Assembly: GCA_018340805.1 (NCBI GenBank)
Contig: JACMZG010001911.1
Location: forward strand, 53,955,571 to 54,019,570
Length of the DNA: 64,000 nt
Source: Microvelia longipes
Taxonomy: Eukaryota; Arthropoda; Insecta; Hemiptera; Veliidae
Direction: 5' to 3'
The translations under genes were made by a program, and so were the position numbers. The notes under the pieces are model-generated. The model was not told the DNA's origin, made no database searches, and saw only the letters and a list, made by a program, of their open reading frames with translations. Positions within the stretch are counted from its first letter, which is position 1. Each line of letters starts with the position of its first letter. Shown here piece by piece: positions 7,575 through 53,960 of this stretch.

Positions 7575-8686
7575 CACAGTATTAAATCATTATCAACAGA
7601 GTGGTACACTTGCAATACATTACCCTGACGACTCTAACCTTCAGATTGATGTAGATAAATGAAAATAAAAAATTGACTACCCCTACTATAACTATGATTA
7701 ACAGCCACTATGAGACTTCAGAATATAAATTCAATTTTAGCGAATTTCCTTAAGAAAAAAATTGCTGTGGGTCTTGAACCACAGACCATAACTCAAATCT
7801 GTTTCAAAGGTCCCTGATTACAAAAAAATACGTTTTGAAGGACACGATACCTATTGGAAATCAGGCTCTTGTAATCCGGTTGTATCAAACCAGGTTTACT
7901 GAGTCACCAACATTGTAGAAAAAATCGGTAAAATTCAGAGTTAATATTTTTCGCCGCGAAAAAAATGTCAAATAATTTAATGTTATTATATTTCGCCGCG
8001 AAAAAGGTCTCTATTTATGTTTTTGGGTCGTTGAATCGAATAAAACCGATAGTAAAGTAGTAGTTTTGTAATGCAATGAATTTTCTAAGAGATCTAAGTA
8101 CCGTGGAATCTTCTTAAGCATTTTAACAAACATAAGTTCTAGTTTAATTATGTTTAGACTTGTATAAAAATCAATAAGAACTTAATTCGGCTATTCCTTT
8201 TGTACTTGGAAGTTCTTGGTTAGAGTAATTAACTTAAAAAATTATAAATTTCTCACTCAAACTAAAAAACTCACTGAAAAAGAAATCCCTTATTCAAAAG
8301 ATAAACATGAGAACCAATGTCATCCTCTGAAGAATTAGTAATAATAGTTCGTAAGCATACATTAATGTCAAAATGTACAAGAGATAGTTAGTGTAGTAAA
8401 AGATAACAAACTTGGTATTGAAACGCATCGACTAACCAATAGTGGAGAGAAGTATAGGGAGGGGGATGGAAAATGTTCCGAGAGTATAATATACTAACTT
8501 GTAAAATCAATCCAGTCTTTGTCTATTGGATATAATTTAGTTTCAACCGAATTAAAGCCAATATACAAGGATCAAAGTCCCTCGATAGCTACTTGGAAAC
8601 AATTTTAAGTTGGAAATGGAATCATAACTTTGTGTAAACTTAATTGTTTCTGATCAATCTACTCCTTTAAAAATAAGTCGGTATTA
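7575..8686. other. noncoding between duplicated blocks
   Basis: No gene. Near 7764-7786 the minus strand has a box-B-like TCTGTGGTTCAAGACCCACAG, possibly a tRNA-derived fragment, but no clear box A was found. Confidence 0.4.
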
Positions 8687-15597: not shown

Positions 15598-16202
15598 GTG
15601 AGGCCAAGGTAGGATGGTTTTAGGGCCGGTATACCAGAGGCAAAGTCAGTGCCCGGTGAATCCGCTCCGGTCCTCCGTCCAACCACCGCCTATAACAACC
15701 ATGCGTTATTATCGTCTATGGATCTACACGTGTAACACGCTTCTATTAATGAGCGTCGTAGGTTTCTCGGTAGCAGCAGCGAGAGTTTTGGTATTCGATA
15801 TGAGACGACATCTCGTACCCGGACTTTCACTGACGCAACCTGGATTCTTATACGCTTACGCAGTGCTAGTATTCCAATCAGGCTTTCTTCAACTCGTCGG
15901 CTGTTTGGGTGCCCAACGATTGAATGAACGTCTCCTTAACGTCTACTGGTTCCTACTGCTCGCTCTCTTGGTCGGGGATCTCGTCCTAGGAGTGTTCTGG
16001 TTGTTCCGGTTTGACAGGATACTATCAGAACTGAAACCATTCCTTAAAATGAGCTTATCACGGAGGTACGGATACGACTCTCACTTCACATCTCTCTGGG
16101 ACTCTTTACAGTCCCAAAACAAGTGCTGCGGTATCCACGGATATCAAGATTATCGATTTATAAATTTTACCATTTTTGATGGAGGAGCTTACACTATAGG
16201 AG
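15598..16202 (+). CDS. tetraspanin, coding exon 1 (with short 5' UTR)
   Basis: First coding exon of a tetraspanin, a four-pass plasma-membrane scaffold protein that organises partner receptors and integrins. The exon probably begins at 15598 after TTTAG. An in-frame TGA at 15599 sits just before the ATG at 15614, which is therefore the first possible start. A second ATG at 15701 (MRYYRLWIY) gives the short cytoplasmic N-terminus usual for the family and may be the real start. Numbered from 15614, membrane segments are about 36-61, 77-99 and 107-131. The large extracellular loop then opens, with the family-defining CCG at residues 171-173 (NKCCGIHGY). The exon ends in phase 1 at G|GTACGT. GC content and codon use stand out from the surrounding AT-rich DNA. 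No orthologue name is assigned because EC2 is distinctive and I could not compare it. Confidence 0.9.
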
Positions 16203-17720
16203 GTACGTAAAGAATAACATATAGTATATATAGATTATATATAGCAAATATAGTATTTGCATAGTATAAATCATAAAACCTTTTAACTCTCAAGGTTCTC
16301 CCTTTGTTCAAGGGGAAGAGTAATGATAAAAGTTTAATAAAAAAACCGATTCCCCTTTAACTCTTTTCCGAAACTGACTTTTAATTTGGGAACTTAATAA
16401 TTCTTCCTTAACATCTTTTTTCGGGAATCTTTTTTCCCTGAAGTTTAAGCTGAAGAAGGATATCTCATAAAGCTTAACTTCTAACATAGTTTAAAGCAAC
16501 AATAAACTATAAAATACTGAAATAATTTAAGCTTCAGCTTTTTTTATTATTCTATGACCTCTCTGAGATCAATTAAGTTGAAGTTGTGGGGAATTTAATG
16601 ATGAATAAAATATGACAAAGTATCAGATAACAGGAGTTCATGCATAAATCACAACTCCTGATCCCGAGCTGAGTCGCTAGACAATTTCCTTCACCCTATC
16701 AAACCCTTTGTCTTAAACTTAACGACATCATTAAAGGTTTGACAAGGATTTGTGTTTAGATACTGAATAACACTGATTTAGTCATTAAAATTCTATATTA
16801 TCCTAATGATCATATTTAAACATTATTCATAAGTAGTGATAATAATATTTTTTAATAAATAATATACAATAATATAAATTATAAAAAAGATATTTTTTAT
16901 GACAAGAAATCCATCTTTGACCATTAAAAACGCAAAAGGTATACGCTAAAACAAAAAACGCTAATTCCTCGGTTTTTTCAGTTATTAATAATATTTTTTA
17001 TAGTGTACAGTAAATAACTAGTTTATAATATATGCAGATGCATCCACGTTGTCGAACGCATGTAGACAAGTATGTTTAAAACAGTTATAAGAGAAAATAA
17101 CATTGAATTTTGGGTATGCACCACACCAGCCTGAAATATGTCTTTAATAGCTTTATTCATATCATAGAATATTTATATATTATAGAATATTATATTTTAT
17201 CATAGAAGTACTCAGAGAGGTAAAATGAGCACCATTCCAAAAGATGATTTATATTGTTATTTTCATAATATGTATCAGAAATGACTACGGATTTCTTTTA
17301 GAAAATTATCTAAGTGATGCCAAATTTGATATTAAATATAGTTATAATTTGAACTTGTTTCCCGTATTAATGTGAATAATCATAAATAAACAATGAATAA
17401 TGTTTAAAAAATATTTTTCTAGAAAAGTAATGCTGTTTATAGGTCCATGTTTATGAGGAGTTAATATCTTCAGTTATTTATCTAAAGATAAATTTAAAAG
17501 TATTTCCCTGATCTTATTGTGACGTTAGTGATGGACCTTAAATCATTTAAACCAATGAAATATCAGAGATAACAACATCTCAGGGAACTATTTTCTATGA
17601 TATATTCTACTACACCTCTAGAAACTATTTTCTAGAATAATAACATCGTATGCGTAATATTTTAAGATAATTCTGCATGTGTAAAATTTAAGAATAAATT
17701 TGATCTTTCATTTATTACAG
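16203..17720 (+). other. tetraspanin intron 1
   Basis: Phase 1 intron of 1,518 bp with donor GTACGT and acceptor TTTATTACAG. Contents are AT-rich with no recognised element. Confidence 0.85.
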
Positions 17721-18036
17721 GTATTAGTTCTGAAAGCATAGTACTTCCTAAATCATGCTGCAAAGAAGACCGACCACCAATAACAGCGGCTGCATTAAAT
17801 CGTCACATGCAGCACACGTCTACAGGTCAAACAACAACCGTAACAACACCAACAGTGGCACAACAACAACCCATATCACCTTATCAGCCACCAAGATGTC
17901 CTCCAGATACCTCACCTCATGTACAATCATGTCTGCCACATTTACATGCATGGTTGACCCAAACAGCACATGTCCTTTTCGTTATAGGATACTGCGTTAT
18001 CGCATTTATTAAATTATCATTTCTCGGAATACTTAG
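17721..18036 (+). CDS. tetraspanin, coding exon 2 (rest of EC2 and TM4)
   Basis: Continues exon 1 in phase. It encodes residues about 197-302: the second double cysteine (PKSCCKED, C209-C210), then a Thr/Gln/Pro-rich stretch (about 229-254). Next come C256 in PRCPP, C267 in QSCLPHLHAWL, and the fourth membrane segment (about 279-301). Together with CC171-172 this makes six cysteines in a large loop of roughly 147 residues, consistent with a six-cysteine tetraspanin EC2. The low-complexity Thr/Gln stretch is unusual for such a loop and probably forms an exposed linker. Ends in phase 2 at CTTAG|GTAAGT. Confidence 0.88.
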
Positions 18037-19228
18037 GTAAGTTGAACTTATGACTATTTATTCATACATTACATACATTGGAGCAAAACCAAAATATGCT
18101 GTACTACAAGTCTTTTTGCAACTTAAATAGTTAAGTCTTTGTAGCTTTTCTCTTAAGGACAGATGATTTGTGTTTTTTGCCTTTAAAACAACCTACGTGT
18201 TAGATTTTCCTGTAAAACCTCTAAATGGCTGAAGACCATGAATCAGTCCGCCTCCGTTTTTACTACTAAAAAATACCCTGAGTGAGAAAAAATCCTAAAA
18301 TTGCCCCACGGAAAAAGGTAAATCCCCTGACTCTCATAATTGAGGCCCAGTTAGGTTATTAGCTTTATTAGCCCAAAAATGCATCAGCTTTGTTAAAAAA
18401 GGATTTCTTTCTCTAACCTGTGTTCAGTTTTAAACAATAATTTCCTTAGTGTGTCGTTAATGTTCAATAATAACCTTGGTAAATTGACTTTAAAATTGCA
18501 ATAAAGATTGTACTGTTGGTTTTATTATATCATAATAGACCATCCTAATTATTTACAAGACCAAAACATTTTTTATCAGAGTGCCATGAATACAGAATAA
18601 ACTGAACTGAAACATTCTCTTAATATTTGTTTACAAGATGTATTTTGTAACATAAGGAATATAAAAATCAATCATTTTAACTGACAGGTTAGTTTAGAGT
18701 AGCTCCAGCGGTTCCTTTAGTCTACTCTATTATATGAGTATAAACTTCATTCCATACTCCAGTATCTTTTAATAATGATATATTGGCATCTATATTTTCT
18801 CTGACCTATATAGTAACTTCTTGTATTTAGACTGTAATATTTTTAAGTCACATGAAGAGTGGAACGTTTCAGATGTGCTGTAATTATCTTGAACTACGAA
18901 AGTAAAGTTTAAATTAAGTAGAAATGAAAATTAGAAAAGAATATCCTTTTTATATTTTTGTAATCTACTAAAAACCGAATTGGTTACAATTTAGTCCATT
19001 TACTCTTTTCTAAGGAAGAAAAAAAATCTAAAAATCTCTTTTAAAAATTATGTAGCCGCATTAATTAAAAGTTTTGCCATAACTTACAAGATATGACCTA
19101 CCATTCAATATTTGTAAACTGTAAGATCATGAGTTCGGATCCTAACAAGGACAAATTCTTTTTATTTTAGGATGTCTAACATTAACAATATATTTGCTTA
19201 GTATTCTTAAATATATTTACTATGACAG
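18037..19228 (+). other. tetraspanin intron 2
   Basis: Phase 2 intron of 1,192 bp, GTAAGT to ACTATGACAG. An upstream TTTATTTTAG at 19161-19170 looks like an acceptor but would read into TAG after nine codons, so the later AG at 19227-19228 is preferred. A tRNA-like box-B phrase (GAGTTCGGATCC) lies near 19130. Nothing else recognised. Confidence 0.75.
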
Positions 19229-19377
19229 GTACGAGATAAAAGAAATGATACAGAAAATAAAACTGGTACAAGAAAGTACGGGGTCAACAGGTTCACAAAT
19301 AGTACGAACAGACGGCGCTGATAAGATAAGCGTCAAAAATAATGGTGCTATTATTGCTCAACAGCCAAATAGCATAG
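19229..19377 (+). CDS. tetraspanin, coding exon 3 (start of cytoplasmic tail)
   Basis: Completes the codon for R302 and reads YEIKEMIQKIKLVQ, the charged segment expected immediately after the fourth membrane span (FLGILRYEI is a typical tetraspanin junction). It continues into a polar tail and ends in phase 1 at ATAG|GTATGT. The splice choice at the 5' side is fixed by reading frame: the acceptor at 19228 preserves the family-like sequence while the one at 19170 gives a stop. Confidence 0.85.
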
Positions 19378-19739
19378 GTATGTTTCACATTTAATTTACT
19401 AAATGTTCCTTGAATATTTTTTTCTTTAACATGTTATGCGGAATGAAATTTTACACATTACCTTATTAAGTCAAAAAGGAGGGGATTTCCACATTTCATT
19501 TATACGTTAACATAGATTTTACGTTTACTAATTGCCAAATCTCATAGCAAGTAAGAAACGATAAACAACCGTCATAGAGAGGGCAAATTAATTCAAAAAA
19601 GGAAGGAGGATAATAAGGAGATTAAAGGAGGAGCTTAAAGGAGGAGCTTACGTTATTTTATCAACCAATCAGCTTATTTTTATTGTTTACTTGCCAAACT
19701 TACAGTGAATTTAATTGTTTCAAATTTTAAATCTCTAGC

Positions 19740-26175: not shown

Positions 26176-27711
26176 TCAATTGCTTTCGGCTACCCGCACG
26201 TTATTAGTATTTTTAACGTTCTGCTGTATAAGTTACTGTAATTTGATCTATTTATTTGATTATATTATTAATCTAAGATGGTCATGTTACTTTTTCAATT
26301 ACTACGTACACACAGTCTATTTAATATGTGATTACATTCCAAACGCATTAAATACTATCCGGTTCTAGCACCGTATTTGTTTAGTCGATCCAGTCAGATG
26401 ACGTCATAACTTATCCCGTTAAAGCAACCTGTCTTTTATTGTGAAGGTTCACTTAATTTAATAGGTTGTTCTAAACAAAAACTATATTTAATTAAATTGT
26501 AATTTCTTTGCATTATAATAAAGTTATACTAAAAAAAAATATTTGAAAAGTTATTTGGTGAAAAACGGTAATATTATTTAAGTGAAATGGGTCGCCCCCG
26601 GGGTCTCGACAAGTGGATGTCTCGACACTGCGTAACGTCGACACATGTGTCGATCTTACGCAAAATCAGGACAGAGGTGTCACGTGATATATTTCGTCGA
26701 GAAGGTAATATTTCAAATACGATCGCCTTTAAAGGCTTTGTTTGAAGGTACATATGCGCGGATGGCGCGTATGATCGATCTAGATTCCATCTCCCTAGAT
26801 CTAGCGTATCCGACTAAAATCCCTCCGCATGGTTCTTACAGAGTATTTAACTACCGTACATAATACGATCCGCTAATTTAGAATACTTTGTGAACGTACT
26901 GAATGTTTCAAATGCAAATAAGACCCCTTTATGAGAGTAAGAAACTATTGTAGTGTAGACGTCGCGGCTCGGCATAGTAGGCAACTTTATACTTCACATA
27001 GTTCTTCCATCTTATTAGATTAATGAAATTAATTAACAAAAAACCTAAGAATACACAATATTACATTGACAAACCTCTCGCTATAAATATATAACCGCCC
27101 GTAATATCACAAAGCCCGTAGCGACCGCACGAAATTTTTAAACTAGCCATTTTTCCACATTCTTCTTCATCTTTACATTCTCAAATTAAATATGGCTGAC
27201 AACTTTAGTTTTATTGTAACGCGATACCTATAATCTTTTTTTTACTAATTTTTTTTAAACTTTAAATTGGTCATAACTTATAATTATATTTGACGTGAGA
27301 TTCAGATGCAAAACATTAAAACTTATTCTAAGTAATATTTGTTTTTAATATTCTTTATTTTTTTAAACACCATATTTTACATAATCAGATAAATTCATTA
27401 AAAAGTACCTCTCCCAAGAGGTCTTGAAAAAAGACCTGCGCCGCAAAAGGGAAATGTGTGCCTCTTTATCTTATGTATTCTTTTCCTTTTAAGAATATTA
27501 CATTTTATATGAATAATTTATAAATAATTTAAATAGAATAAATAGATAATAAAAATCGTTAAAAATAATAATAATTTTGATGGGTTTTATAAGAAATAAA
27601 AAAGAAAATGATGTTTTTATAATACAAATATTTTTATTAGTTAATTTTATTTAAATAATTATATTATTTATTTTGACTAGTTTAATTATTAGGATGTTAG
27701 ATTAGTTAGTA
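26176..27711. other. intronic, with a local GC-rich palindrome
   Basis: Mostly AT-rich, but 26580-26880 is clearly richer in GC and CpG. It holds the palindrome at 26630-26663 (TGCGTAA ... TCGACACATGTGTCGA ... TTACGCA, two mismatched positions). No protein family recognised in the open frame at 26645-26863. Confidence 0.5.
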
Positions 27712-27720
27712 GTTATATAT
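27712..27720. repeat. left 9-bp target-site duplication of the foldback element
   Basis: GTTATATAT immediately precedes the GGGA terminus and is repeated exactly at 35723-35731 after the TCCC terminus. Confidence 0.85.
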
Positions 27721-29946
27721 GGGACTGCCTAAAACACTGAACAGAGGAACTACTGAATGCAAGAACTACTGAAGAGCATATCCAGGCTAAAAGCTATAAT
27801 GACTGTTCCTACAGAGTTGATAATTAGTACAAAAATAGATAACAACATTATAAGAGTGTCCAAACTTCGTCCAGTGGAAATATATTGTTGTTAACCACAG
27901 TTATGTACTCGATTAAGTAATTCACTGAATACATTATGTTTTCACTGAACGGCCAAATGGCTGTACCTACAGACTTCATATTTAGTACAAACATAGATAA
28001 CAACATTATGAGAGTGTTCAAACTTCGTCCAGTGGAAATATATTGTGGTTAACCACAGTTATGTACTTGACTAAGTATTCACTGAATACATTATGTTTTA
28101 CTGAACGGCCAAATGGCTGTACCTACAGACTTATATTTAGTACAAACATAGATAACAACATTATGAGAGTGTCCAAACTTCGTCCAGTGGAAATATATTG
28201 TGGTTAACCACAGTTATGTACTCGATTAAGTAATTCACTAAATACATTATGTTTTTACTGAACGGCCAAATGGCTGTACCTACAGACTTCATATTTAGTA
28301 CAAACATAGTAAACAACATTATAAGAGTGTCCAAACTTCGTCCAGTGGAAATATATTGTGGTTAACCACACTTATGTACTTGATAAGTAATTCACTGAAT
28401 ACATTATGTTTTACTGAACGGCCAAATGGCTGTACCTACAGACTTGATATTTAGTACAAACATAGATAACAACATTATAAGAGTGTCCAAACTTCGTCCA
28501 GTGGAAATATATTGTGGTTAACCACACTTATGTACTCGATTAAGTATTTCACTGAATACATTATGTTTTACTAAACGGCCAAATGGCTGTACCTACGACT
28601 TGATATTTAGTACAAACATAGATAACAACATTATAAGAGTGTCCAAACTTCGTCCAGTGGAAATATATTGTGGTTAACCACACTTATATACTCGATTAAG
28701 TATCACTGAATACATTATGTTTTCACTGAACGGCCAAATGGCTGTACCTACAGACTTGATATTTAGTACAAACATAGATAACAACATTATAAGAGTGTCC
28801 AAACTTCGTCCAGTGGAAATATATTGTGGTTAACCACAGTTATGTACTTGACTAAGTAATTCACTGAATACATTATGTTTACTGAACGGCCAAATGGCTG
28901 TACCTACAGACTTGATATTTAGTACAAACATAGATAACAACATTATAAGAGTGTCCAAACTTCGTCCAGTGGAAATATTGTGGTAACCACACTTATGTAC
29001 TCGATTAAGTATTTCACTGAATACATTATGTTTTACTGAACGGCCAAATGGCTGTACCTACACTTGATATTTAGTACAAACATAGATAACAACATTATAA
29101 GAGTGTCCAAACTTCGTCCAGTGGAAATATATTGTGGTTAACCACACTTATGTACTCGATAATTATTCACTGAATACATTATGTTTCCACTGAACGGCCA
29201 AATGGCTGTACCTACAGACTTGATATTTAGTACAAACATAGATAACAACATTATAAGAGTGCTCAATTTTCGTCCAGTGGAAATATATTGTGGTTAACCA
29301 CAGTTATGTACTCGATTAAGTAATTTACTGAATACATTATGTTTTCACTGAACGGCCAAATGGCTGTACCTACAGACTTATTTAGTACAAACATAGTAAA
29401 CAACATTATAAGAGTGTCCAAACTCGTCCAGTGGAAATATATTGTGGTTAACCACACTTATGTACTCGATAAGTAATTCACTGAATACATTATATTTTTA
29501 CTGAACGGCCAAATGGCTGTACCTACAGACTTGATATTTAGTACAAACATAGATAACAACATTATAAGAGTGTCCAAACTTCGTCCAGTGAAAATATATT
29601 GTGGTTAACCACACTTATACTCGATTAAGTATTTCACTGAATACATAATGTTTCCACTGAACAGCTAAATGGCTGTACCTACAGACTTGATATTTAGTAC
29701 AAACATAGATAAGAACATTATAAGAGTGTCCAATTTTCGTCCAGTGGAAATATATTGTGGTAAACCACATTATGTACTTGATTAGTAATTCACTAAATAC
29801 ATTATGTTTTCACTGAACGGCCAAACGGCTGTACCTACAGCCTTCATATTTAGTACAAACATAGTAAACAACATTTTAAGAGTGTCCACACTTCGTCCAG
29901 TGGAAATATATTGTGGTTAACCACACTTTATATGCAATTAAGTATC
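27721..29946. repeat. foldback left arm: about 14 tandem units
   Basis: The unit of about 157 bp contains ACGGCCAAATGGCTGTACC, ACATAGATAACAACATTATA, CAAACTTCGTCCAGTGGAAA and the 14-bp palindrome TGTGGTTAACCACA, then ATTCACTGAATACATTATG. Fourteen occurrences of GTCCAGTG(G)AAATAT can be counted. Copies differ by a few substitutions and small deletions, often at homopolymers. Confidence 0.9.
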
Positions 29947-30406
29947 CGTTTGAGGCGTTTTTAAGGCCTTTGAGTGGTTTTCCGCAAAGTTGTCTGTCTG
30001 TATGTGTGTTTTATTCTTAGGGATTTAAGATGAAAAGAGTTCTAATGACTGAATGAAAAGATGAATTGACTAAGACTCTTAAATAATAAACTAAATGTGT
30101 GTGTATGTCTGTTATCATTGTAGCGCCCAGTGTATTTAGTTGAAATTTTGTACAAAAATCAGTCTACCGCTGCAGTTGTACTATTTGGAAAATATTTTTT
30201 TATGATTCATTGACCCCCAATGATGACTCAGAGAAAATTTCAAAAAAATCATAAAACACGAAAAATGATGCGAACGGATTAAGATTCGGCACGCATGTGA
30301 CTATAAAAAGACTAACATATGTGCAAAGTTTCATCTCATTATCAGCATTAGTTTAATTTTTATTGAATGACTTGTGTGCGTTCTTTAAAAAATTGTAACA
30401 TGTTTC
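29947..30406 (-). repeat. foldback central spacer holding a family A repeat
   Basis: Read on the minus strand this contains the family A modules TTAAACTAATGCTGATAATG and CACATGCGTGCCGAATC, then CACTGGGCGCTACAATGATA, a CA-rich stretch, CAGACAGACAACTTTGCGG and AACCACTCAAAGGCC. It ends before the family tail. There is no transposase-like frame, so whatever the ancestral centre encoded is gone. Confidence 0.7.
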
Positions 30407-31962
30407 CACATATTTCCACTGTACGAAGTTTGGACACCTTTAAAATTTTGTTATCTATGTTTGTACGAAATATCAAGTCTGTAGGTACAGCCATTTGGCT
30501 GTTCAGCATATTACTTAATCGAGTATATAGGTGTGGTTTACCACAATATATTTTCACTGGACGAAGTTTAGACACTCTTATAATGTTGTTATCTATGTTT
30601 GTGCTTAATATCAACTCTGTAGGTACAGGCATTTGGCCGTTCAGTAAAAACATAATGTATTCAGTGAACTACTTAGTCAAGTGCATAACTGTGGTTAACC
30701 ACAATATATTTCCACTGGACGAAGTTTGGACACTCTTATAATGTTGTTTACTATGTTTGTACTAAATATGAAGGCTGTAGGTCAGCCATTTGGCCGTTCA
30801 GTGGAAACATTATGTATTCAGTGAAATACTTAATCGAGTACATAACTGTGGTTAACCACAATATATTTCCACTGGACGAAGTTTGGACACTCTTATAATG
30901 TTGTTTACTATGTTTGTACTAAATATGAAGGCTGTAGGTACAGCCATTTGGCCGTTCAGTGGAAACATTATGTATTCAGTGAAATACTTAATCGAGTACA
31001 TAACTGTGGTTAACCACAATATATTTCCACTGGACGAAGTTTGGACATTCTTATAATGTTGTTATCTATGTTTGTACTAAATATCAAGTCTGTAGGTACA
31101 GCCATTTGGCCGTTCAGTAAAAACATAATGTATTCAGTGAATTACTTAGTCAAGTACATAACTGTGGTTAACCACAATATATTTCCACTGGACGAAGTTT
31201 GGACACTCTTATAATGTTGTTATCTATGTTTGTACTAAATATCAAGTCTGTAGGTACAGCCATTTGGCCGTTCAGTGGAAACATAATGTATTCAGTGAAA
31301 TACTTAATCGAGTACATAACTGTGGTTAACCACAATATATTTCTACTGGACGAAGTTTGGACATTCTTATAATGTTGTTATCTATATTTGTACTAAATAT
31401 CAAGTCTGTAGGTACAGCCATTTGGCCGTTCAGTAAAAACATAATGTATTCAGTGAACTACTTAGTCAAGTGCATAACTGTGGTTAACCACAATATATTT
31501 CCACTAGACGAAGTTTGGACACTCTTATAATGTTGTTATCTATGTTTGTACTAAATATCAAGTCTGTAGGTACAGCCATTTGGCCGTTCAGTAAAAACAT
31601 AATGTATTTAGTGAATTACTTAGTCAAGTACATAACTGTGGTTAACCACAATATATTTCCACTGGACGAAGTTTGGACACTCTTATAATGTTGTTATCTA
31701 TGTTTGTACTAAATATCAAGTCTGTAGGTACAGCCATTTGGCCGTTCAGTGGAAACATAATGTATTCAGTGAAATACTTAATCGAGTACATAACTGTGGT
31801 TAACCACAATATATTTCCACTGGACGAAGTTTGGACACTTTTTTAATGTTGTTATCTATGTTTGTACTAAATATCAAGTCTGTAGGTACAGCCATTTGGC
31901 CGTTCAGTAAAAACATAATGTATTCAGTGAATTACTTAGTCAAGTACATAACTGTGGTTAAC
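30407..31962. repeat. foldback right arm, part 1: about 10 tandem units
   Basis: Same ~157-bp unit as the left arm but in inverse orientation (TTTCCACTGGACGAAGTTTG ... GTAGGTACAGCCATTTGG). The first unit is the most diverged. The arm is interrupted at 31962 by the copia insertion and resumes at 35394. Open frames across it on either strand have no homology and are not genes. Confidence 0.9.
31958..31962. repeat. copia target-site duplication, left
   Basis: TTAAC, repeated at 35389-35393. A 5-bp duplication is standard for Ty1/copia integration. The target lies in the centre of the satellite palindrome TGTGGTTAACCACA. Confidence 0.9.
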
Positions 31963-32109
31963 TATTGGGGCTAATCCATGCTCCAATATATTAACTTGAC
32001 ATTGAATGACAATGTCACAGTTAATTTTTATAAGTATTGAGTTAAATCAAATATGTATTATTGTTGAAATAAGTAAGTAACTTAAAAAACTGAAATTGAA
32101 TAGTTAATA
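31963..32109 (+). repeat. copia 5' LTR
   Basis: 147 bp beginning TATTGGGGCTAATCCATG and ending GAATAGTTAATA. Matches 35244-35388 except for a few single-base or short indels. Its ends are TATT/AATA rather than the common TG/CA. Confidence 0.9.
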
Positions 32110-32123
32110 GGTTATGGGCCCAG
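32110..32123 (+). other. copia primer-binding site (initiator tRNA-Met half)
   Basis: GGTTATGGGCCCAG directly follows the LTR. It is the exact complement of the anticodon-arm stretch CTGGGCCCATAACC of eukaryotic initiator tRNA-Met, from memory of the conserved tRNA. Drosophila copia uses the same internal half-tRNA priming rather than the tRNA 3' end. Confidence 0.88.
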
Positions 32124-32168
32124 AATAAACAAAGAAAGTTTAAAAAAAAAAAAAAGAAGAAGAAGAAC

Positions 32169-32830
32169 GTGAGTAAAAAAAAAAGCAATTTAAATATTAA
32201 TATTAATTCAAAAGAGGAAGTTATGGATAAACCTGAGATACTGAGCAGTATTAATAAATTTGATGGGGATAACTACAGACAGTGGAGATTTCAAATCATT
32301 TGCGCACTCAGAGCAAAAGGTGTCAAGTATACTCTGAGCCAAGAATGTCCTAAGGATAATCCAGAAGAAGCTATGAAGTGGGATAAAGACGACGCTATTG
32401 CTTTATGCACCATTACATCAGCTATGGTATACAAGCAAATTGAAATAATTGAAAATTGCCAAACAGCTAAAGAAACGATGGAAAAGTTAAATTCAATATA
32501 TGACATCAAAAGTGAATCAAACAAACTAATAGTTCATGAAAAGTACCACAGCTACGTGATGAATCCATCAGACAGTATGGCGCAACATATATCAAAGGTG
32601 TGGAAAGTTTAGCAAAACAAATAAGAGATTCGGGCGATACAGTTAGTGAAAATTCGATTATTACAAAGATACTTGGAACTCTCCCTGTTAAATATCGAGG
32701 TTTTAGACAAGCATGGTTATCAACTAGTGATGATAAGCAAACCCTTATGAACCTAACAGCTAGATTGCTTGATGAGGAAATGAGTTTGACTTCATTTGAA
32801 GAAAAAGGATGTTGCATTAGCTACGAGTAG
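32169..32830 (+). pseudogene. copia gag, frameshifted
   Basis: The frame from 32169 encodes the N-terminal gag region with the typical FDGDNYRQWRFQI block. It breaks at about 32598-32612, and the gag sequence resumes in another frame from 32600 (ILGTLPVKYRGFRQAW, a copia gag signature) up to about 32825. Gag forms the cytoplasmic particle that packages element RNA. At least one indel breaks it, so a complete protein is not expected. The start could also be the internal ATG at 32223. Confidence 0.85.
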
Positions 32831-33423
32831 TGAAAATAAGACAAGAGGAGATGAGAGAAAAACCCTCCGTGTGCTTTAGATGCTCCCAATGCGGCCATAT
32901 TGCTCGTTTTTGTAGAACAAAATTCACAGAAATTAATAATGTCAAAAACTATCGTAATAATCACTTGCATACGAATAATAATAAAACACAAGGACATTTT
33001 TCAGCTTTTGTGGTCTCAGAAAAGAAGGAGCTACATAAAGACCAGGATGATGAGTGGATCATGGATAGTGCTGCATCGTCACACATGTCATATAGGTTAG
33101 ATTTCTTTAGTACTTTAACAAAACTAAAAGAAAATTATACTGTCAAACTTGGGAACAATCATGTAGTACAAGTTAAAGGAAAAGGAAGTATAAAAATCAA
33201 GAAATTGATAAATGACACTTGGTATGATTCAATAATTCAAGATGTGCTATATATTCCTGAATTGTCTAGAAACTTATTTTCAGAGAGTGTTCTGACGAAC
33301 AAGGGAATGCAAATATTCAAGGAAGGTAACAAGGCAGAAGTTTATGATAAAGACGTTTTGGTTGCGAAAGGAATTAGAAAACCTAATAACTTATATAAGA
33401 TGATGTTTAAAAACTCTTGTTAA
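32830..33423 (+). pseudogene. copia zinc knuckle and protease region
   Basis: A 197-codon frame. A CCHC knuckle (CFRCSQCGHIARFC, spacing C-x2-C-x4-H-x4-C) lies near its start; it binds element RNA. The aspartic protease site follows as DSAASSHM about 75 residues in. A conserved LYIPELSRNLFS and the segment leading toward the gag-pre-integrase domain come next. It ends at a stop (33421) where intact elements continue into integrase, and it is out of frame with gag upstream. Confidence 0.85.
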
Positions 33424-33439
33424 TGATGAATGTTTATTA

Positions 33440-34084
33440 GGGGACAAAGACTCAAGCTTGAAAGTATGGCATGAAAGACTTTCACATAATGAACAAGACA
33501 AAATATAGATATGGTTAATAAGAATTCAGTGACCGGAGTTAACTTAAAGGACAAAAATAAAGTATCTCGGAAAGAGTTTATTTATAGGAAGCATCAACTT
33601 CATTTAAAAAGAATGATCATAATAAGGCTCGATGTCCTGGAGAAGTAATTTATAGTGACCTCAGTGAGGAGATGCCTGTTGAATCTACTTCGGGTGCTAG
33701 ATATTTTGCGTTATTTAAAGATGGATACTCAGGATATAGTTGTATGTTTTTTAAAACATAAAAGTGACATATTGAAATATTTTAAAGTTTTTGTAAATCA
33801 AATTAAAAATTAAGTACGGCTATTTAGTAAAGATTCTGCAAACAGATAATGGATCAGAATACTGTCATCTTGAATTTAGAGAATATATGAAGAGATTAGG
33901 GATTGCACACGAGACAATGGGACCACACACACCTCAAAAAAATTCAAGATCAGAACGAGATGTAAAACAATAATGGAGAGAGCAAGATCAATGTTACATG
34001 AAAGAGATGTGCCCAAGTATTTATGGGGAGAGGCAGTAAATACAGCAGTGTACATCTTGAACAGAAACTGCTACAAATCAAACA
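33440..34084 (+). pseudogene. copia gag-pre-integrase and integrase core, broken
   Basis: Fragments in shifting frames encode VWHERLSH (gag-pre-integrase), the first integrase acidic block near 33650 and the TDNGSEY block at about 33845-33865. The RSER block near 33950 carries the catalytic Glu. The D, D, E catalytic order is therefore visible but divided by several frameshifts and stops, so no functional integrase is possible. Confidence 0.8.
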
Positions 34085-34684
34085 ATGAAGTCAATTCCAT
34101 TTGAATTGTGGACAGGTAAAAAGGCGGATTTATTGCATACAAACATTTTCGGAAGTCCAGCATACATGCTTAAGCCAGATGTATTCAAAAATAAACTGAA
34201 CTCAAAAGGGAAGAAATTTATATTTGTTGGTTATGAAGGTTATTCAAATAATTATAGATTATTCGATCCCAATACCAAATCAATCAAAGTGTCGAGAAAT
34301 GTAGTTTTTGATGAAAATGACAGCGCTCAATTAAATACTAAAATGAGTGAGACTGTATATTTTGATTTTTGTGATAGTGGACAAGAAACTATAAGTCAAA
34401 GTATTATTGATGATAACATAAATCAAATTAAAGAAGGCAATAATGATGATAACAATATTATTAATGAAGAAGAATTAGATAACAATAATGAATATCATAA
34501 TATTGGAAAACAGAGTAACATTGAACAAGAAGAAAATGTTAAAAACAATATAGAAGAACAACAGGACCAAAATAATGTGAACAATCAATGTAACAATAAT
34601 GTACAAGCGAGCTTACCAAATAATTTAAAACCAAGAGACAGATTAAAGCAAGCGGATAGGTATGAGCTCAGTTTGTCAAATTAG
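34085..34684 (+). pseudogene. copia integrase C-terminal region and Asn-rich linker
   Basis: Reads PFELWTGKKADL and FGSPAYMLKPD, typical of the copia integrase C-terminal half, then the KGKKFIFVGYEGYSNNYRLF block. A very Asn/Glu-rich linker follows, then PRDRLKQADRYEL, which normally leads into reverse transcriptase. It stops at 34682. The 5' end of this open frame is an artefact of an upstream break. Confidence 0.85.
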
Positions 34685-35235
34685 ATGAACCAAGAGAATC
34701 TATCAGTAATAAATATCAAGATAAATGGAAAGAATCTATTCAGGATGAACTAAATTCTTTAGGGAAGTGTGATCGTGGAATATGGAAAGTTGACCCAGTC
34801 ACTAAAGGAAAGATGACAACAGAAACTAAGCGGAGATTTAAAATTAAAAGACATCCGAATAGTGAAATTGCAAGACTCCTTGCAAATGGCTATTCCCAGA
34901 AATATGGGCGATATTATTATTAACAATTGAGCCTATTAGTATCTATATGGGCTATCAAAGCTCAATAATAGTAGTCAAAATTCTATGTATTTCTTAAGAA
35001 CAAGACATATTAGTTCACTATCATTTTGAAAAAAAAAAAAAATATTTTAATATTTCAGACCAACTTTCAGGTATTCTCATAAAGGCATAAAGACATTGCC
35101 TAGGGCAAACTGATTGGTGCGTCGACATTATTTTTTTAGAGGGGATACAAAATTATGCCAACTAATTGATTAAGGGGAAGTTATTGAAGCTTTGATTAGG
35201 GGAGAGGGGATTCATTTAAATTGTTGCATGTATTA
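34680..35235 (+). pseudogene. copia reverse transcriptase/RNase H remnants around a deletion
   Basis: 34690-34922 encodes the N-terminal RT lead-in (KWKESIQDELNSL, then GYSQKYG). Sequence then jumps to a stretch resembling the extreme C-terminus of RNase H (RTRHISVHYHF at about 34998-35030). The YVDD-type catalytic region and all core RNase H motifs are absent. The junction lies around 34925-34985. Confidence 0.7.
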
Positions 35236-35243
35236 AGGGGAAG
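35235..35243 (+). other. copia polypurine tract
   Basis: AAGGGGAAG directly upstream of the 3' LTR, the expected primer site for plus-strand synthesis. Confidence 0.8.
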
Positions 35244-35388
35244 TATTGGGGCTAATCCATGCTCCAATATATTAACTTGACATTGAATGACAATGTCACA
35301 GTTAATTTTTATAAGTATTGAGTTAAATCAAATATTGTATTATTGTTGAAATAGAAGTAACTTAAAAACTGAAATTGAATAGTTAATA
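35244..35388 (+). repeat. copia 3' LTR
   Basis: 145 bp, near-identical to the 5' LTR. Followed by the TTAAC duplication, after which the foldback satellite resumes exactly where it was interrupted. Confidence 0.9.
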
Positions 35389-35393
35389 TTAAC

Positions 35394-35722
35394 CACAATA
35401 TATTTCCACTGGACGAAGTTTGGACACTCTTATAATGTTGTTTACTATGTTTGTACTAAATATCAAGTCTGTAGGTACAGCCATTTGGCCGTTCAGTAAA
35501 AACATAATGTATTCAGTGAATTACTTAATCGAGTACATAACTGTGGTTAACCACAATATATTTCCACTTGACAAAGTTTGAACACTCTTCTAATGTTGTT
35601 ATCTATGTTTGTACTAAATATCAAGTCTGTAGGTACAGTCATTATAGCTTTTAGCCTGGATATGCTCTGTTCAGTAGTTCTTGCATTCAGTAGTTCCTCT
35701 GTTTAGTGTTTTAGAAACTCCC
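35394..35722. repeat. foldback right arm, part 2, and right terminus
   Basis: Continues the satellite unit interrupted by copia, one more complete unit, then the unique terminal segment. That segment is the inverse of 27721-27800 (GCTTTTAGCCTGGATATGC ... AACTCCC). Confidence 0.9.
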
Positions 35723-35731
35723 GTTATATAT
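35723..35731. repeat. right 9-bp target-site duplication of the foldback element
   Basis: GTTATATAT, identical to 27712-27720. Exon 4 begins 150 bp further on, so the element inserted close to the branch-point side of the intron. Confidence 0.85.
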
Positions 35732-35881
35732 TTAAGTGGTTAGTAAGTTTGGTCAGTAAATTTAATTAGTTAGAGTTAGTGTGTTAACTTGGTTAATATT
35801 ATTATACTCTTTTATGGAGTAATATTATTATACTTTTTTTTAAATATGTTGAATTAACAATGTTAATTAATTTTTAACTAG

Positions 35882-36055
35882 GTAAAGTATTGAAAATGGA
35901 AGAAGGAGATAGTCCAGCTAAGCTGGGAGGTAAAAGACATTTAACAACATTAATAACACAAGATCCCGGTACTGATAGTGATACTAATAGTCACTGTGCT
36001 TTAATATTATGCGAAGAGGGTATTAAACCTCCTAATCAAGACCTTAATATTAATG
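35882..36055 (+). CDS. tetraspanin, coding exon 4 (cytoplasmic tail)
   Basis: Begins after TTTTTAACTAG and restores the frame left by exon 3 (split Gly codon). It encodes residues about 352-409, reading KMEEGDSPAKLGGKRHLTTL and later DSDTNSHCALILCEEG. The stretch is polar and acidic, consistent with a cytoplasmic tail. It ends in phase 1 at AATG|GTAAGT. Assignment to this gene rests on phase, codon quality and position, since no conserved domain lies here. The 16.5-kb jump from exon 3 makes transcript support desirable. Confidence 0.72.
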
Positions 36056-36235
36056 GTAAGTCATAAATACAACTCCTCATCTGAATAATTTCTATTATAC
36101 TTTTACATGATATTGCTATATTGGTAACTCTTTAAGTTGATAGTTCTGTAACTACTTCCACCAAGAAATGAATATGACCTTTTATTTTTTATTTATTTAC
36201 AATTAACGGCTTATAAGCTTATAAAGTACTAAAAC

Positions 36236-52650: not shown

Positions 52651-52672
52651 ACTATAGTTATTTGTGTAACTA

Positions 52673-53666
52673 GGCAGGAAAATAGAATATTACTGACTAG
52701 TATCGAAGTTAGCCCCCGAGCCGAAGGCAAGGGTGTGCTATCTTAATTACCTGCAGAGGCGAAGCTCAGGCAGGTAATATATAATTTGACTGACGAGGCA
52801 ACGCCGAGGGAGGCAAATATACGAGTCAGTAATGTTTCCTTTCCTGCCTCGTTCCGCACAATATTCTATCTGCGAACAGTAACAAATCAAAACTTGCATT
52901 GTTGAAAAACTTATTACGTTGGTATTATGTTTTATATTTACATTTTCTTTGACTGTTAATACAGATCTTATCATCAAGAAAGTTGACCACAGAGTAGCAC
53001 TCGATTTTGTGTTTGACAGTTCTTTTAAATACGCTAACACAACGTTTTCACTTACATTCTTTACTTTTTTCTCTGAGCACCATTCTTTGCACACTTCATA
53101 TGCTTTGAGATACCTACTTCCTGATTTGCCGGGTAGTAGGCTCTCTTTGGCATTTGTAGCTATTTCCAAAACATCCGACGGGGTATGTTCGAAAAGTTTG
53201 TCTATATCTTCGACGATATTCATCACAAAACACTATAGAACCGCTATAGAATAAACTAACTTTTAAACTGTATTAAATACGGGTTTGTATGATAAAAGTA
53301 GTAGATGACTTGACAAAAAAAGATGAGATAATAAACCAAGACAAAAGTGTTGCCTTTAAAATAATCAATAAATTTATTTCTAATTAAAGATTTACATTAC
53401 AAAACTGTTTTATTTTAATTTTAATTAGTTAAATATGTAATTATTCATTATATAAATATTAAAATTTCAATAGGCTTTTTATTATTAATAATCATGTTTA
53501 TAAATATTATCTATTAACTTTCTTTACAGCAAAGGTAGGGGCGGTTGGGAAATGCTACTTTCCTGCCTAGGCAGGTAATGTGCAGTCATTCATGACTAAT
53601 TACCAGCCGATCTGGGAAATACTACTTTCTCGCCTAAATTAGTTCAGTAATGCTTCATTTCCTGCC
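52673..53666 (-). mobile_element. tyrosine-recombinase element remnant
   Basis: A 1-kb segment whose ends are inverse of each other: GGCAGGAAAATAGAATATTACTGACTA-like on the left and TTCAGTAATGCTTCATTTCCTGCC-like on the right (about 27 bp, imperfect). The same motif appears a third time internally at 52824-52848. Related short motifs (CTACTTTCCTGCC, CTACTTTCTCGCC, AGGCAGGTAAT) cluster near 52768 and 53555-53635. It carries the 5' part of a recombinase gene on the minus strand and lies between two long direct repeats. No target duplication was found, as expected for tyrosine-recombinase elements such as Cryptons. Confidence 0.5.
52747..53226 (-). pseudogene. tyrosine recombinase, N-terminal core-binding part only
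   Basis: A 159-residue frame. Its first ~110 residues (SGSRYLKAYEVCKEWCSEKKV, then ENVVLAYLKELS and SSATLWSTFLMIRSVL) resemble the helical core-binding domain of Crypton-like tyrosine recombinases found in insect genomes, from memory of the family. That domain grips DNA, while the catalytic domain with the R...HxxR...Y residues should follow. Here the frame instead runs into the repeated terminal motif (about residue 127 on) and stops, so the catalytic half is deleted. It cannot act alone as a recombinase. The upstream minus-strand context has no visible promoter. Confidence 0.55.
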
Positions 53667-53689
53667 ATAAAATTATAAATATTTTTATT

Positions 53690-53960
53690 GAATAAACATG
53701 TTTTATTGACATATAATGTTTTTTAACAATCTGTACAATGGTTAATCTAAAAACATAAGAGGTCTCCATTATGTTAAAAACTGGTTCTACAAGGCTACAC
53801 CCAGGGATGTCAGACTTTAACTGAAGAGGGTAGTCAACGCATGAGACTGACGCCAGTGCTGAGTGGCCATTCTGGTGGCTAAAAAATTAACTATTTTTGT
53901 TCAAAGTTAGCTATTTACACCTGCATTTTAACAATAATTGTCAAAGCATAATTAAAATTA
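53690..53960 (+). repeat. 265-bp direct repeat, right copy
   Basis: Near-identical to 52389-52650 over CTGGTTCTACAAGGC through CAAAGCATAATTAA, with about a dozen differences concentrated at the left edge. Confidence 0.9.

What the first reader, a model, noticed from the sequence alone, without database searches (positions are those of the whole stretch)
27712..35731. Complete foldback transposon with satellite arms and 9-bp duplication inside a tetraspanin intron
Inverse termini (GGGA...TCCC), arms built from a ~157-bp tandem unit in opposite orientation (about 14 against 12 copies) and an exact GTTATATAT duplication on both sides are all visible. This matches the Drosophila FB layout, but the unit is much longer than FB subrepeats. 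The family may be new in this lineage.
Basis: partly seen in the sequence, partly recalled or inferred. Interest (0 to 1): 0.75.

Follow-up and report, generated by a model that had tools for sequence, protein, structure and literature searches.

The report
Foldback transposon with satellite-built arms
An 8-kb piece of mobile DNA in an insect genome, whose two arms are mirror-image rows of a 157-letter repeat, probably sits in a gene's intron; relatives elsewhere in the same genome carry the same ends and the same kind of 9-letter insertion scar, so it is a real jumping element of a known kind, without an enzyme of its own that we could find.

Summary
In detail: window 27721-35722 is an 8002-bp element with inverted termini, opposed arms of a ~157-bp tandem unit and an exact 9-bp duplication, GTTATATAT. 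The ends differ: one begins GGGACTGCC, the other GGGAGTTTC (clear in 16 of the 17). Variants private to this copy among 25 sampled occur in both arms, so the arms have evolved together. No transposase was found: the nearest Merlin, MULE, FLYWCH or P-type domain hit is about 154 kb from a listed end. A Mutator-type enzyme acting in trans is most likely, by duplication length and analogy with Tetris, Tm1 and Muta1. New member of a known kind. At least one very long "copy" is an assembly mis-join.

The parts
27712..27720 (.). left target-site duplication GTTATATAT
   Evidence: sequence
27721..27797 (+). left terminal domain (L end, GGGACTGCCTAAAACACTGAACAG...), with three of the five ACTGAA motifs of the outer 240 bp
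27798..29928 (+). left arm, about 13.7 tandem units of ~157 bp
   Evidence: TRF
29940..30399 (+). remnant of the core (460 bp matching 487 bp of the 2.7-kb core of L046 at 86%); non-coding, part of a very abundant genomic repeat
30403..31962 (-). right arm up to the nested insertion, about 9.2 units plus inner partial units
   Evidence: TRF (30512-31962); sequence
31963..35388 (+). nested copia-type LTR retrotransposon (LTRs begin at 31963 and 35244, about 145 bp each; no substitution and 4 one-base indels between them; TTAAC on both sides); gag, Pol_BBD and SH3-like pieces in separate short frames
35389..35640 (-). outer part of the right arm, about 1.6-2 units
   Evidence: sequence; unit at 35483
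35641..35722 (-). right terminal domain (R end; reads GGGAGTTTCTAAAACACT inward)
35723..35731 (.). right target-site duplication GTTATATAT
   Evidence: sequence
15695..16210 (+). tetraspanin coding exon (context)
   Evidence: Pfam PF00335
17666..18040 (+). tetraspanin coding exon (context; weak, below the Pfam cut-off)
19230..19379 (+). probable C-terminal tetraspanin exon (YEIKEMIQKIK...) ending in a phase-1 donor; would start the intron that holds the element
   Evidence: exon limits inferred
35879..36056 (+). candidate next exon, phase-compatible (GKVLKMEEGDSPAKL...)
   Evidence: inference

Best explanation
This is one copy of a non-autonomous, cut-and-paste foldback-type DNA transposon family. 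Shown: defined, non-identical L and R ends; 9-bp target duplications at many independent loci; arms of a ~157-bp tandem unit in opposite orientation; a non-coding core; variants shared between the two arms of one copy. Inferred: a transposase supplied in trans recognises the shared terminus (GGGAnTnnCTAAAACAC) and perhaps the repeated ACTGAA motifs, cuts the element out and pastes it in with a 9-bp stagger; the enzyme is most likely Mutator-type (MULE; about 0.65 on the evidence here). Arms grow and shrink by unequal exchange or slippage, and the opposed arms exchange sequence with each other, which homogenises them and may now and then flip the core. After this copy inserted (probably in a tetraspanin intron), a copia-type retrotransposon landed in its right arm.
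For: Ends and target duplication in the window; 17 of 25 end pairs with a duplication, plus one further same-contig pair (CTAGTGAGT, C565:40502231-40538844) and two cross-contig pairs; control flank comparisons 0 exact of 528 and 1 of 496, against 12 exact of 1056 L-R comparisons. Short complete copies of 480, 1082 and 1173 bp with the same ends and exact duplications. Core of six distinct copies 90-97% identical to L046 over about 2.7 kb, with no stop-to-stop frame above 113 aa (one copy, C1361, was entered twice as L045 and L055). Unit divergence in the window copy: within left arm 0.049, within right 0.050, between arms 0.051, to other elements 0.063; over all sampled pairs, same arm 0.020, other arm of the same element 0.027, different elements 0.045. 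Variant G102 in 38% of left-arm and 100% of right-arm units and 0 of 209 units of 24 other elements; T112 31/44/0.5%; C115 15/44/0%. Core orientation relative to the ends: 6 of 8 duplication-paired copies one way, 2 of 8 (C562:36154283, C564:28886148) the other (my reading; the mis-joined C505 and C565 spans left out). Tetris, Tm1 and Muta1 have comparable layouts and 8-10-bp duplications (passages).
Against: No transposase with these ends was found; no MULE, Merlin or FLYWCH domain hit lies within 185 kb of any of the 107 ends that I entered. A 9-bp duplication also fits Merlin elements (8-9 bp). Eight of 25 pairs have no duplication, one of them because the pairing was wrong, one pair being L/L and one R/R; two of the three shifted pairs can be read as 8 bp instead. 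One of the five elements with enough units in both arms (C1361a) does not show arm homogeneity (0.020, 0.109, between 0.073, to others 0.042). Flipped cores could be assembly errors, because these elements do cause mis-joins. Arm sharing may date from an unsampled source copy rather than exchange within this one.
Confidence: 0.9

Rival explanations
1. The same non-autonomous foldback element, but moved by a Merlin (IS1016-type) transposase rather than a Mutator-type one.
For: Merlin elements have terminal 5'-GG and 8-9-bp duplications, sometimes very unequal ends and internal tandem repeats (PMC8101967, passages read); the genome holds 66 Merlin-domain matches, some in intact frames, more than the 22 MULE matches.
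Against: Of four Merlin loci read, the one with recognisable ends begins GGTAGATCTTCGGTATACGG with an 8-bp near-duplication (7 of 8), unlike these ends; none of the four matches either 18-bp terminus within 5 substitutions; no Merlin hit within 185 kb of an end (33 of 66 rows entered).
Confidence: 0.2
2. An ordinary satellite array with a local inversion, and a chance 9-bp repeat at its edges.
For: The arms are homogeneous tandem arrays, the usual look of satellite DNA.
Against: Same ends and 9-bp duplications at many loci with different flanks; complete copies with only one to three units per arm; every listed unit hit lies near a terminus (capped list).
Confidence: 0.02
3. A P-superfamily foldback element like Galileo.
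For: Galileo has long internally repetitive arms with extra transposase binding sites (abstracts in the listing; passage); P-type transposase domains exist here (52 matches).
Against: Duplications here are mostly 9 bp; P elements make 8 and Galileo 7 (recalled). The nearest P-type hit to an end is about 154 kb away (compared by eye).
Confidence: 0.05

Closest known systems
Tetris (Drosophila virilis foldback transposon; PMC4079207, passages read)
   Same: Long arms with an outer flanking domain and a tandem array of a long unit (about 220 bp), variable copy number, non-coding middle, 8-10-bp duplications, no autonomous copy found; also assigned to Mutator from duplication length and earlier suggestions about foldback elements.
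   Different: Unit 157-158 bp, and no sequence comparison was possible; here more complete copies with duplications (three structurally complete copies in that paper), ends consistently non-identical (L and R), a conserved 2.7-kb core, and no free-standing arrays among the hits listed (capped list).
Tm1 (Mutator/Foldback family of root-knot nematodes; PMC3169594, passages read)
   Same: Composite arms of tandem repeats, asymmetric short motifs at the two outer ends, mostly 9-bp duplications, many non-autonomous copies.
   Different: Arm unit about 14 bp; Tm1 has a transposase-bearing copy (Phantom subclass of Mutator), which was not found here.
Muta1 (active Mutator-like element of Aedes aegypti; PMC5225508, passages read)
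   Same: 8-9-bp duplications, ends with subterminal tandem repeats, called a type 2 foldback element, over 300 putative non-autonomous relatives, most sharing only the ends.
   Different: 12-bp subterminal repeats, 145-bp ends and a transposase shown active in yeast.
Drosophila FB/NOF (recalled)
   Same: Foldback layout and 9-bp duplication (recalled).
   Different: Short arm sub-repeats (recalled); no sequence relation was tested.

Membership tests
Foldback-type element (structural class) | long inverted terminal repeats made of tandem sub-repeats, variable in number, around a middle segment | tested here: met
Foldback-type element (structural class) | target-site duplication at independent copies | tested here: met
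   17 of 25 pairs
Mutator (MULE) superfamily | 8-10-bp, mostly 9-bp, target duplication | tested here: met
Mutator (MULE) superfamily | MULE transposase encoded by a copy with the same ends | tested here: inconclusive
   22 PF10551 and 14 FLYWCH hits, none near the 107 ends entered; the test is limited to recognisable domains, a capped list of ends and an assembly with gaps
Merlin superfamily | terminal GG and 8-9-bp duplication | tested here: met
Merlin superfamily | Merlin transposase encoded by a copy with the same ends | tested here: inconclusive
   not found; four Merlin loci read, none with these ends; 33 of 66 hit rows compared with the ends; same limits as for MULE
P superfamily (Galileo) | 7-8-bp duplication | tested here: not met
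   mostly 9 bp; the P and Galileo lengths are recalled
Tetris family | sequence homology of terminal domain and unit | not testable with these tools
   no Drosophila genome or Tetris sequence was at hand
FB/NOF family of Drosophila | sequence homology to FB arms or to the NOF protein | not tested
   no reference sequence was fetched

The most novel reading that the evidence does not exclude
The two opposed satellite arms behave as one self-correcting palindrome: they pair with each other, exchange sequence (spreading new variants to both arms) and sometimes flip the core between them. And one terminus, GGGAGTTTCTAAAACAC, has been fitted to at least two unrelated tandem units of the same ~158-bp length, so satellite arms would be a recurrent, selected feature of what one transposase mobilises rather than debris.
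Probability: 0.3. Interest if true: 0.6.

Novelty: new member of a known kind. Interest (0 to 1): 0.36.

Why it matters
Foldback elements with long tandem units seem rare in print (Tetris is the clear case in the listings) and are proposed nurseries of satellite DNA. This genome offers many copies with both ends and insertion scars, arms from one to more than twenty whole units, and copy-private variants in both arms, so arm growth, inter-arm exchange and core inversion can be measured rather than guessed. It is also a practical warning: such elements can join unrelated chromosomes in an assembly.

Tried and rejected
Transposase inside the longest copies: the apparent 30-kb copy C505:15945460-15975513 was read in pieces (about 1.7 kb of it not held) and shows a run of N of about 14 kb and a mis-joined contig, not a gene. 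A 10.9-kb copy (C505:11429044-11439902) was read in part; the 4.5 kb of interior held are arm units plus a 0.68-kb core piece. L070, with the same ends and no arm units, holds nested repeats, and L071, with a few units, holds rearranged core pieces; neither shows a transposase. Merlin as the source of the ends: four Merlin loci read, none with these ends. One long MULE frame (L063, 750 aa) has no such ends within the 5 kb held. Other loci that begin with the 17-bp terminus (L064-L069) show no transposase frame in the 1.9-3.0 kb held. No terminus or unit match in viral contigs. No Rfam match above the gathering score in 27600-35900. The window ORF at 52747-53229 found no protein relative at E <= 0.001. 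Papers: the searches showed no title or abstract start describing this family; the 23 papers hold terminus-like letters, look unrelated by title, and were not opened; passages of PMC2884549 gave no end sequences. My first suspicion that the 30- and 37-kb spans were composite elements moving as a unit was dropped once the internal R ends matched copies on other contigs.

Rows dropped before counts: only a hand-made list of 37 sources (window included) was used, and units with N or not spanning the query were left out (231 units from 25 elements kept); only a hand-made list of 64 loci was used, and ends with more than two substitutions or less than 9 bp of flank were left out; the Merlin hits on C205, C810, C428 and C515 were reduced to one each (33 of 66 rows entered), no entered end being on those contigs.
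Full report
Observation. The element runs from 27721 to 35722 (8002 bp) with GTTATATAT on both sides. TRF finds 13.7 copies of a 156-bp unit on the left and 9.2 copies of a 158-bp unit in reverse on the right; further units follow at 35389-35640. The interruption is a copia-type LTR element at 31963-35388: two LTRs of about 145 bp with no substitution and four one-base indels between them, TTAAC on both sides, and gag (PF14223), Pol_BBD (PF22936) and SH3-like (PF25597) pieces.

Context. Tetraspanin exons lie at 15695-16210 and, below the Pfam cut-off, 17666-18040. A further exon at about 19230-19379 ends in a phase-1 donor, and a candidate exon at about 35879-36056 is in phase with it. The element would then be in a 16.5-kb intron; this is inference. 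The host is an insect; hemipteran is a tentative guess: the named matches to the first tetraspanin exon are planthopper, water-scorpion, cockroach, scale-insect and beetle proteins at 52-64% identity, while the best match, 90%, has no name.

Other copies. The genome that holds the window (664.6 Mb) was searched. The 130-bp left end gives 189 matches from 40 of 202 candidates scored, many of them arm units; the 84-bp end gives 40 from 40 of 92 scored; a 22-bp terminus with up to 3 mismatches gives 85 places, against 7 for the reversed control pattern. Of 25 end pairs for which both flanks were read, 17 have a duplication: 11 exact at 9 bp as read (one extends to 10); 3 exact at 9 bp when the boundary is moved (C565:27763714-27770863 AGGCTGAAG; C564:28886148 CCTTGTCTA and C1361:15797815 ATATTTTCC, which then begin GGAG and can also be read as 8 bp); 2 with one mismatch; 1 of 8 bp; 8 have none (the moved boundaries are my reading of its printed flanks). 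Matching 33 L flanks with 32 R flanks gave 12 exact pairs, two of them on different contigs, and 2 pairs with one mismatch, one of these across contigs and probably chance; like-with-like controls gave 0 exact (1 within one mismatch) of 528 and 1 exact of 496, so about one exact chance match is expected.

Ends. In 16 of the 17 duplication-bearing pairs one end is of the GGGACTGCC kind and the other of the GGGAGTTTC kind (allowing single changes); the 17th has one intermediate end, GGGAGTGCC. The one pair with two L ends (C618) and the one with two R ends (C110) have no duplication. So the ends are distinct and probably both needed, which recalls the A1 and A2 motifs of Tm1.

Assembly caution. 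The apparent 30-kb copy on C505 contains a run of N of about 14 kb and, beside it, an internal R end whose flank is identical over 280 bp to C707 sequence just beyond the gap in the copy at C707:21263188; the 9-bp flank CACTAGATG matches that copy too. Likewise the R end at C565:40523889 carries the 9-bp flank TGAAATCCT of the copy at C558:30106236, while C565:40502231 and 40538844 share CTAGTGAGT. The first is best read as a mis-join through near-identical arms; the second is probably one, but rests on 9 bp only. Arm lengths in the longest copies should therefore not be trusted.

Core. Six distinct copies share a core of about 2.7 kb, 90-97% identical to L046, with no frame above 113 aa. It holds two related copies (about 73%) of a very abundant repeat (6426 first-look candidates, 40 scored). 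The window copy keeps about 460 bp of it. Relative to the ends the core lies one way in 6 of 8 duplication-paired copies and the other way in 2 of 8 (read; C505:15945460 and C565:40502231 left out because of the mis-joins).

Arms. From 231 whole units of 25 elements, units of the window copy differ by 0.049 within the left arm, 0.050 within the right and 0.051 between arms, against 0.063 to other elements; overall the means are 0.020 (same arm), 0.027 (other arm, same element) and 0.045 (different elements). Of the four other elements with at least three units in each arm, three show the same pattern (C505b, which borders the mis-join, C505c, C518a) and the fourth, C1361a, does not (0.020, 0.109, between arms 0.073, to others 0.042), its minus-arm units being divergent. 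Variants private to the window copy among those sampled occur in both arms (position 102 G: 38%, 100%, 0 of 209 elsewhere). Either the arms exchanged sequence in this copy or they did so in an unsampled source. Well conserved stretches of the unit include ATGGCTGTACCTACAG, CGTCCAGTGG, the TGTGGT of an imperfect palindrome and the ACTGAA motifs; ACTGAA occurs five times in the outer 240 bp, and 4 of 1000 dinucleotide shuffles reach as many copies of any six-letter word.

Enzyme. None found. The genome has 66 Merlin (PF12762), 22 MULE (PF10551), 14 FLYWCH (PF04500) and 52 P-type (PF21787) domain matches. The nearest Merlin, MULE and FLYWCH hits lie 186, 685 and 209 kb from any of the 107 ends entered (33 of 66 Merlin rows); the nearest P-type hit is about 154 kb away (by eye). 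The Merlin copy with readable ends has different ones. The 9-bp duplication and the layout favour a Mutator-type enzyme, by much the same reasoning as was used for Tetris; Merlin is not excluded.

A second armed family. Loci beginning GGGAGTTTCTAAAACACGGACC or close variants (C562:56663585, C564:39375122, C1361:27179649 and others) share the first 17 bp but not the rest; L064 has its own 158-bp tandem unit with only short, chance-like matches to ours, and L065 has a 30-bp repeat about 0.8 kb inside its end. If one enzyme moves both, satellite arms arose more than once around one terminus.

Verdict.

Noticed in passing
C505:15957046-15967045 (L057, about 8234-8540) and C707:21263188 (L004): Scaffold mis-join: an internal R end on C505 carries 280 bp of flank identical to C707 and the C707 copy's 9-bp duplication CACTAGATG.
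   Followed up: yes
C565:40523889 (L082) and C558:30106236 (L005): Probable second mis-join: the R end on C565 carries the 9-bp flank TGAAATCCT of the C558 copy, while C565:40502231 and 40538844 share CTAGTGAGT.
   Followed up: partly
contigs C205, C810, C428, C515 of G000: Merlin transposase-domain fragments repeated about every 1.1 kb, as if a piece of a transposase gene had become a satellite.
   Followed up: no
C562:56663450-56666450 (L064), C564:39372300-39375300 (L065): Other loci share the 17-bp terminus GGGAGTTTCTAAAACAC but have unrelated tandem repeats inside; L064's unit is also 158 bp.
   Followed up: partly
window 52651-53690; L070 128-3022: A repeat whose reverse strand encodes what looks (recalled) like the start of a tyrosine-recombinase-type protein lies in the window and, split by a short-LTR element, inside another element with the foldback ends (L070). 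Pfam and protein searches gave no support.
   Followed up: partly
arm units, e.g. window 31795-31808: The window units hold a perfect or near-perfect palindrome TGTGGTTAACCACA, which resembles two opposed Runt/Lozenge binding sites (recalled); about twenty copies in a possible intron.
   Followed up: no
L049 3238-3906 (-) and 3861-4529 (+): Two nearly identical 223-residue frames in opposite orientation, with what looks like a GIY-YIG endonuclease motif (recalled, Penelope-like), forming a palindrome.
   Followed up: no
L054 6814-9999: A frame of at least 1062 residues with repeated DPLSVTT-like peptides running to the end of the fetched stretch.
   Followed up: no
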